64,000 nt of DNA, from positions 372,001-436,000 of the forward strand of contig NZ_CP045293.1 in the NCBI RefSeq assembly GCF_009363075.1, read 5' to 3'. How positions within the stretch are numbered: the first letter of the stretch is position 1; every line of letters begins with the position of its first letter. Of the stretch, positions 49,379 to 50,576 are shown in pieces. The position numbers were made by a program, and so were the translations under genes. The stretch comes from Paenibacillus guangzhouensis. GTDB lineage: Bacteria > Bacillota > Bacilli > Paenibacillales > Paenibacillaceae. A model generated the notes under the pieces. It did no database searches and had not been told where the DNA came from. It saw nothing but the letters and a program-made list of their open reading frames with translations.

Positions 49379-49407
49379 TTGACAATCTAAACTTTTTTTA
49401 TTATCCT
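49379..49407 (+). promoter_or_regulatory. Sigma-A promoter of the riboswitch-controlled deaminase gene
   Basis: A perfect -35 TTGACA (49379-49384), a 17-bp spacer and TATCCT (49402-49407). Transcription would begin near 49414, about 20 bases before the aptamer. Confidence 0.7.
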
Positions 49408-49432
49408 TTTTAAAAAATTATGAATTCAATAG

Positions 49433-49502
49433 AATGTCGTATAACTCCAATAATATGGTTTGGAGGTCTCTACCAGGAACCGAAATTCCTGATTACGAAG
49501 AA
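49433..49502 (+). promoter_or_regulatory. Purine riboswitch aptamer, adenine type
   Basis: The conserved purine-riboswitch core is present: TCGTATAA at the P1 5' side, ATAATATGG in the P2 region, the TCTACC joining segment, and ATTACGA at the P1 3' side. P1 is short (TCGTA 49437-49441 with TACGA 49494-49498). The base that sets specificity (xpt position 74: C for guanine, U for adenine) is T at 49493, so adenine is predicted. It lies directly upstream of an adenosine/adenine deaminase gene, which fits. Confidence 0.88.
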
Positions 49503-49545
49503 AGTACAAGCTTTGTATTTTCTCCGTAGTCAGGAATTTTTTTCT
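49484..49545 (+). terminator. Riboswitch expression platform: conditional terminator
   Basis: AATTCCTGATTACG (49484-49497) pairs with CGTAGTCAGGAATT (49525-49538, one G-U), extended by AGAAA/TTTCT-type pairs, and followed by TTTTT. The left arm is the 3' part of the aptamer (P3 and P1 strands). Folding of the ligand-bound aptamer and the terminator are therefore mutually exclusive, predicting gene ON with adenine. Confidence 0.85.
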
Positions 49546-49583
49546 GGTTTTTTTTGTAAAAACATATTTTCAGGAGGTCAAAA

Positions 49584-50576
49584 ATGAACTTTTTAGCATT
49601 GCCAAAAATTGAACTTCACTGTCATTTGGATGGCAGCCTTAGGGGCGAAACGATTATCGATATTGCTCAGAAGGATGGTATTCCGTTACCCACTTTTGAT
49701 AAGGATGAACTGCAAAAGGAACTGATTGCTCCGTTAGAATGTGAATCCCTTGATGAGTATTTAAAAAGATTTTCTCTTCCTAATTTGGTCATGCAGTCCA
49801 AGGAGAACTTAAGAAGAATTACTTTTGAGCTATTTGAGGATGCAACAAGGGAAAATGTGAAATATTTAGAAGTCAGATTTGCCCCGTTACTTCACACATT
49901 AAAAGGTCTTGATGTAGAAGAAGTTATTCAATCGGTTATAGAGGGGATGAGGGAAGCTGAACGCTGTTACGAAATAAAGGGAAATATCATCCTGTCTTGC
50001 ATGAGGACGATGTCCGTAGAAAGCGCATTTGAGGTGGTTGAAAAGGGTAAAAAGTTCCTTGGAAAAGGTGTAGTAGCAATTGACCTATGTGCATCAGAAG
50101 AAGAAGGTTTTTGTGAAAGATTCATAGATCCAATCGCATTAGCCAAACAATATGGCTACAGGGTCACGATTCATGCCGGTGAAACGGGAATTGGTAAAAA
50201 TGTTCTAGAAGCTGTTGAACTGTTGGGTGCTGAAAGAATAGGACACGGCGTATTTATTAAAGAATGCGCTGAGGCTTATAAGATCGTGAAAGAAAGACAG
50301 GTAGTGCTTGAAATGTGTCCAACAAGTAATGTCCAAACGAAAGCTGTTCAACATTATTCTGAACATCCGATTTATCAGTTTCATAAAGATGGAATTAAAG
50401 TGACAATAAATACGGATAACAGAACAGTATCAGATACTACAATGGCAAAAGAAATTCAATTCGTTGACAAAGAATTTATTCTAAGCGAAGAAGATTACCG
50501 GCAGATTTATGTAAATAGTGTAGAAGCATCCTTTGCCGACCCAGAAACGAAAGAATGGTGCATGGCACAATATTAA
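49584..50576 (+). CDS. add: Adenosine/adenine deaminase
   Basis: A 330-residue metal-dependent amidohydrolase that deaminates adenosine to inosine (or adenine to hypoxanthine) in purine salvage. The zinc motif 'ELHCHLDGS' (His12, His14) is present, with 'TIHAGET' (His197, Glu200), 'RIGHGVF' and 'TINTDNRTVSDT' (Asp278). CAGGAGG precedes the ATG. The codon use is AT-rich compared with flanking genes. It is transcribed alone behind an adenine-type riboswitch, as known for the add gene of Vibrio vulnificus. This supports adenine, rather than only adenosine, as the physiological signal and possibly the substrate. Confidence 0.93.
   Translation: MNFLALPKIELHCHLDGSLRGETIIDIAQKDGIPLPTFDKDELQKELIAPLECESLDEYLKRFSLPNLVMQSKENLRRITFELFEDATRENVKYLEVRFAPLLHTLKGLDVEEVIQSVIEGMREAERCYEIKGNIILSCMRTMSVESAFEVVEKGKKFLGKGVVAIDLCASEEEGFCERFIDPIALAKQYGYRVTIHAGETGIGKNVLEAVELLGAERIGHGVFIKECAEAYKIVKERQVVLEMCPTSNVQTKAVQHYSEHPIYQFHKDGIKVTINTDNRTVSDTTMAKEIQFVDKEFILSEEDYRQIYVNSVEASFADPETKEWCMAQY

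What the first reader, a model, noticed from the sequence alone, without database searches (positions are those of the whole stretch)
49379..49620. Adenine riboswitch with ON-type terminator controlling a deaminase
Promoter, aptamer, specificity base U (T49493), mutually exclusive terminator and deaminase gene are all visible. Adenine riboswitches are much rarer than guanine ones. The pairing with add is known in Vibrio vulnificus, where control is translational. Here it would be transcriptional in a Gram-positive.
Basis: partly seen in the sequence, partly recalled or inferred. Interest (0 to 1): 0.62.

Follow-up and report, generated by a model that had tools for sequence, protein, structure and literature searches.

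The report
Adenine riboswitch before adenosine deaminase
An RNA switch of a well-known kind that probably senses adenine and, when adenine is present, lets transcription continue into an adenosine-deaminase gene; it is real and well conserved, but the same switch-and-gene pair occurs in dozens of other Gram-positive bacteria, so it is ordinary.

Summary
Window 49417-49515 matches Rfam RF00167 (purine aptamer) at 72.5 bits (cut-off 37). The specificity base is T49493 (U74, adenine type). A consensus promoter lies at 49379-49407. The 3' half of the aptamer also forms the 5' arm of a 24-pair terminator, ahead of add (49584-50576, adenosine deaminase).

The arrangement is not unusual. The same unit (promoter, U74 aptamer, overlapping terminator, add) is found at 67 of 74 related add genes in Bacillaceae and Clostridium. 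All have U74 and the overlapping terminator, whose stem shows compensatory changes.

Two extra points. Leader plus gene is a low-GC island, 92-93% identical in DNA to Lysinibacillus/Neobacillus, probably acquired horizontally. A second, 90.6% identical promoter-aptamer-terminator copy lies 17 kb away, just outside the window, before a secreted nucleotidase whose orthologues in three relatives lack it.

Ligand binding and read-through are inferred, not measured. Verdict: new member of a known kind, low interest.

The parts
49379..49407 (+). promoter: TTGACA (49379-49384), 17-nt spacer, TATCCT (49402-49407)
   Evidence: same position in 63 of 69 homologous leaders
49417..49515 (+). purine riboswitch aptamer (RF00167 match)
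   Evidence: 72.5 bits
49437..49441 (+). P1 5' strand UCGUA, pairs with 49494-49498; only 5 uninterrupted pairs (G.A mismatch next), shorter than the usual 6-7
49445..49465 (+). P2 stem and L2 loop (CUCCAAU / AAUAUGG / UUUGGAG)
49466..49473 (+). J2/3 junction GUCUCUAC: U47 and U51 kept; C instead of U at position 48, as in most relatives
49474..49491 (+). P3 stem and L3 loop; its 3' strand is shared with the terminator
49493..49493 (+). specificity base U74 (adenine type); T in all 69 riboswitches scored upstream of add or the nucleotidase
49482..49540 (+). intrinsic terminator: 5' arm 49482-49497 (takes P3 3' strand, J3/1 and P1 3' strand), inner P4-like hairpin 49499-49523, 3' arm 49525-49540
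   Evidence: covariation
49537..49543 (+). U-tract of the terminator (T7)
   Evidence: sequence
49573..49577 (+). Shine-Dalgarno GGAGG
   Evidence: sequence
49584..50576 (+). add, adenosine deaminase, 330 aa
49302..50620 (+). low-GC island (about 29-43% GC in a 51-58% GC neighbourhood): the leader plus add unit, probably acquired horizontally

Best explanation
It is an adenine-sensing purine riboswitch (RF00167, U74 type) that works as a transcriptional ON switch, like B. subtilis pbuE. Transcription starts just after 49407. The three-way-junction aptamer folds first. If adenine pairs with U74 the junction locks, and the polymerase passes the U-tract at 49537-49543 and transcribes add. Without adenine the 3' arm 49525-49540 invades P1, J3/1 and P3 from the toehold of the inner hairpin, and transcription stops. 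Shown: the aptamer match, base U74, the overlap of aptamer and terminator, conservation and covariation, the gene family. Inferred: ligand identity, read-through rising with adenine, induction of Add, and the enzyme's substrate.
For: RF00167 at 72.5 bits. U74 in all 69 leaders scored, upstream of add or the nucleotidase. An overlapping terminator helix with a T-run in 69 of 69 leaders, and a promoter in 63. The terminator stem covaries: 9 pairs with changes on both sides, 0 of 500 shuffles reach any of the five measures, 97.7% paired against at most 49% when slid. The aptamer fold stays within about 3 kcal/mol of the minimum up to nt 111, then the terminator wins by up to 20 kcal/mol, as expected of a co-transcriptional switch. 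pbuE has the same layout: a terminator made at the expense of P1 and P3, nucleated by P4 with a U-tract on its 3' side (PMC7707468). The gene is in the purine pathway.
Against: No binding or transcription data. P1 in this copy has only 5 uninterrupted pairs because of a G.A mismatch, so its affinity or dynamic range may differ; pbuE work reports tolerance of P1 length (PMC7707468). The physiological logic of adenine inducing an adenosine deaminase is not obvious, and the genome also holds an adenine deaminase and a second adenosine deaminase.
Confidence: 0.94

Rival explanations
1. A guanine, 2'-deoxyguanosine or xanthine riboswitch of the same scaffold.
For: The same scaffold is used by guanine and 2'-dG classes and by variants found in Paenibacillus (PMC9295807); three other purine switches of this genome are of guanine type.
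Against: Base 74 is U, not C; U22, U47 and U51 are kept, and there is no insertion in J2/3 or J3/1 as in the xanthine variants. The association with add and the ON-type terminator fits adenine.
Confidence: 0.02
2. An adenine aptamer with an OFF switch, or with translational control as in V. vulnificus add.
For: The V. vulnificus add switch is translational (PMC3280964).
Against: The terminator uses P3 and P1 3' strands directly, so ligand-stabilised P1 excludes it; no antiterminator is predicted. The GGAGG at 49573-49577 lies about 30 nt past the U-tract, outside the switching helices.
Confidence: 0.02
3. A degenerate, non-functional copy left by horizontal transfer.
For: The unit is a foreign low-GC island; P1 is shortened to 5 pairs by a G.A mismatch against 6-7 in most relatives.
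Against: The core is identical to intact relatives; promoter, terminator, Shine-Dalgarno and reading frame are intact, and the P. terrigena copy at the same site is 95% identical.
Confidence: 0.02

Closest known systems
Bacillus subtilis pbuE (ydhL) adenine riboswitch
   Same: U74 aptamer; transcriptional ON switch; terminator formed at the expense of P1 and P3, with an inner P4-type hairpin (PMC7707468)
   Different: controls a purine exporter instead of add; here P1 has only 5 uninterrupted pairs
add adenine riboswitches of Clostridium and Bacillaceae (C. perfringens add recalled from Mandal and Breaker 2004, paper not held)
   Same: same aptamer, terminator and gene; Clostridium and Bacillaceae relatives seen here have the same unit
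   Different: nothing essential; this copy sits in a Paenibacillus-type genome, probably by transfer
Vibrio vulnificus add adenine riboswitch
   Same: adenine aptamer in front of add
   Different: translational control there (PMC3280964), transcription terminator here

Membership tests
Purine riboswitch RF00167 | covariance-model score above the gathering score | tested here: met
   72.5 against 37 bits, full length 1-102
Adenine subclass of RF00167 | U at position 74 in J3/1 | tested here: met
   T49493
Adenine subclass of RF00167 | ligand-contacting U22, U47 and U51 kept | tested here: met
   J2/3 GUCUCUAC and J1/2 UAA
Adenine subclass of RF00167 | binds adenine in preference to guanine | not testable with these tools
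   needs in-line probing or calorimetry
pbuE-type transcriptional ON switch | intrinsic terminator mutually exclusive with P1 and P3 | tested here: met
   covariation; 69 of 69 leaders
pbuE-type transcriptional ON switch | ligand-dependent read-through | not testable with these tools
   needs a transcription assay
Adenosine deaminase (add) | TIGR01430 above its curated cut-off | tested here: met
   312.5 against 216.55 bits
Adenosine deaminase (add) | substrate adenosine rather than adenine | tested here: inconclusive
   best solved relatives are adenosine deaminases and the HLDG, HAGE and GHG motifs align; assay needed

The most novel reading that the evidence does not exclude
The promoter-aptamer-terminator unit behaves as a portable adenine-responsive module. 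Here it was acquired with add from a Bacillaceae donor and then copied, promoter to terminator only, in front of a secreted 2',3'-cyclic-nucleotide phosphodiesterase/nucleotidase gene 17 kb away. This would put an extracellular nucleotide-salvage enzyme and the deaminase under one adenine signal in a single lineage.
Probability: 0.5. Interest if true: 0.38.

Novelty: new member of a known kind. Interest (0 to 1): 0.2.

Why it matters
As a riboswitch it adds one more member to a well-studied class and shows that transcriptional ON control of add by adenine is the common Gram-positive form. The more useful point is the second copy nearby: a case of a gene coming under riboswitch control by capture of a ready-made promoter-switch unit, with riboswitch-free orthologues in close relatives for comparison.

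Tried and rejected
Idea that adenine induces add because these bacteria lack adenine deaminase, so that adenine must go through adenosine: rejected, 49 of 50 genomes including this one carry a PF13382 adenine deaminase. Idea that the twin copy came straight from the window copy in recent time: not settled, since the whole twin leader is no closer to the window copy than to Neobacillus leaders, although it shares the AAGCTTTG loop with the window copy and TCTCCGTA with the window and P. terrigena copies. Laying the whole genome in Python was not available. Literature searches for C. perfringens add found no held paper, so that precedent rests on memory. In the family scan a group of 52-nt pattern matches such as L129 and L133 were false adenine calls: ATTAC falls in the P3 loop and the switch is of guanine type in front of purE/purK. 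The seven add loci without an R1 match gave no RF00167 hit either.

Full report
What was checked. Rfam gives one match in the whole 64 kb: RF00167, purine aptamer, 49417-49515 on the + strand, 72.5 bits against a gathering score of 37. The base that decides between adenine and guanine, position 74 in J3/1, is T49493. U47, U51 and the J1/2 and J2/3 core are kept; position 48 is C, as in most of the relatives found. A consensus promoter (TTGACA, 17 nt, TATCCT) lies at 49379-49407. The leader folds far better than shuffled sequence (z -7.1) into a long terminator whose 5' arm (49482-49497) is made of the P3 3' strand, J3/1 and the P1 3' strand, followed by an inner hairpin and a T7 tract at 49537-49543. 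The simple terminator scan missed it. The gene, 49584-50576, is an adenosine deaminase by TIGR01430 (312.5 bits, cut-off 216.55), by Pfam and by solved relatives.

Mechanism. Folding of growing transcripts shows the aptamer within about 3 kcal/mol of the minimum until nt 111, after which the terminator gains up to 20 kcal/mol (no ligand or loop-loop energy included). That is the order of events of the B. subtilis pbuE switch, in which the terminator grows by strand exchange through P1, J3/1 and P3 from a P4 hairpin, and adenine blocks the exchange (PMC7707468). The logic is ON: adenine allows transcription. Binding and read-through were not measured; they are inferred from U74 and the shared architecture.

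Comparative evidence. A search of one genome per species (84,980 species) with the deaminase brought 74 full or nearly full relatives (65-95% identity), mostly Lysinibacillus, Neobacillus, Cytobacillus, other Bacillaceae and Clostridium. A covariance model built from this genome's and two sister genomes' switches found a riboswitch directly upstream of 67 of them, besides the window. In all 69 leaders scored (window, 67 relatives and the twin described below) base 74 is T, a terminator helix overlaps P3/P1 and is followed by a T-run, and in 63 a promoter stands at the same place. On 39 leaders the terminator stem is 97.7% paired, 9 of 24 pairs show changes on both sides, none of 500 shuffles reaches any of the five measures, and sliding the strands drops pairing to 44-49%. 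Terminator and aptamer are thus both under selection. Several sequences in this set are closely related, so counts of sequences are not counts of events.

Where this copy came from. Leader plus gene form a low-GC island (add 38%, GC3 32%; neighbours 51-58%, GC3 58-68%). Its DNA is 92-93% identical to Lysinibacillus and Neobacillus genes, which lie in surroundings of 33-39% GC, and 96% identical to Paenibacillus terrigena at the same site. In a third species of the genus, G001, homology to the left flank stops at window 49302, where the island begins, and no adenine-type switch is present. Horizontal acquisition by the ancestor of this species and P. terrigena is the best reading; the right-hand boundary was not fixed, because G001 has no close counterpart of the right neighbour.

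The twin. The genome holds five purine switches: this one, a second adenine-type one 17 kb downstream (G000:C1:438351-438449, outside the window), and three of guanine type, in front of an NCS2-type permease, purE and an FAD-dependent oxidoreductase (gene names from the translated sequence). The twin is 90.6% identical over 170 bp, from the -35 to the end of the terminator and no further, with an identical aptamer core and an 8-pair P1. The gene behind it is a metallophosphatase with a signal-peptide-like start, a 5'-nucleotidase C-terminal domain and an SH3 domain, of the 2',3'-cyclic-nucleotide 2'-phosphodiesterase/3'-nucleotidase type. Orthologues of 79-90% identity in three relatives have no riboswitch. 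The nucleotidase therefore came under this control in one lineage. Whether the unit was copied from the local add leader or arrived separately is open.

Regulon in relatives. Among 295 genomes of the family, 52 matched an adenine-type pattern, some of them false (guanine type) as noted. True matches among the loci read precede a pbuE-like exporter, an adenine deaminase, a purine nucleoside phosphorylase and a nucleoside hydrolase (names from the translated sequence). In 44 add-switch genomes add is mostly the only adenine-switch gene; three have a second one, before a methylthioadenosine/adenosylhomocysteine-type deaminase, a LOG-type protein and an adenine deaminase.

Verdict. What it took to be unusual, transcriptional control of add by adenine in a Gram-positive, is the common arrangement. 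The item is a new member of a known kind.

Noticed in passing
G000:C1:438351-438449 (L090:2351-2449), 2.4 kb beyond the window's right end: A second, near-identical adenine-type promoter-aptamer-terminator unit in front of a secreted nucleotidase (L090:2585-4843); absent from orthologues in G002, G008 and G026.
   Followed up: yes
L187 (G322:C33:5500-7950), riboswitch near 2220-2276 on the - strand: In Lysinibacillus sphaericus an adenine-type switch precedes a LOG-type (Lysine_decarbox, PF03641) gene, a family whose plant members release cytokinin bases from nucleotides.
   Followed up: partly
L186 (G320:C1:3163200-3165500): In Neobacillus sp. DY30 a second adenine-type switch precedes an amidohydrolase of the methylthioadenosine/adenosylhomocysteine/5'-deoxyadenosine deaminase group.
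   Followed up: partly
L090:7858-9372 (-), outside the window: A gene of the thiol-activated (cholesterol-dependent) cytolysin family (PF01289, PF17440) about 3 kb past the nucleotidase.
   Followed up: no
G000:C1:3506670-3506769 (L002, minus strand): A guanine-type purine switch with its own terminator in front of an FAD-dependent oxidoreductase, not an obvious purine gene; similar aptamers exist in two sister species (L086, L089).
   Followed up: no
L007 (G000:C1:352276-353247): A second adenosine deaminase (39% identical, TIGR01430 314.7 bits) in the same genome, without a purine riboswitch.
   Followed up: partly
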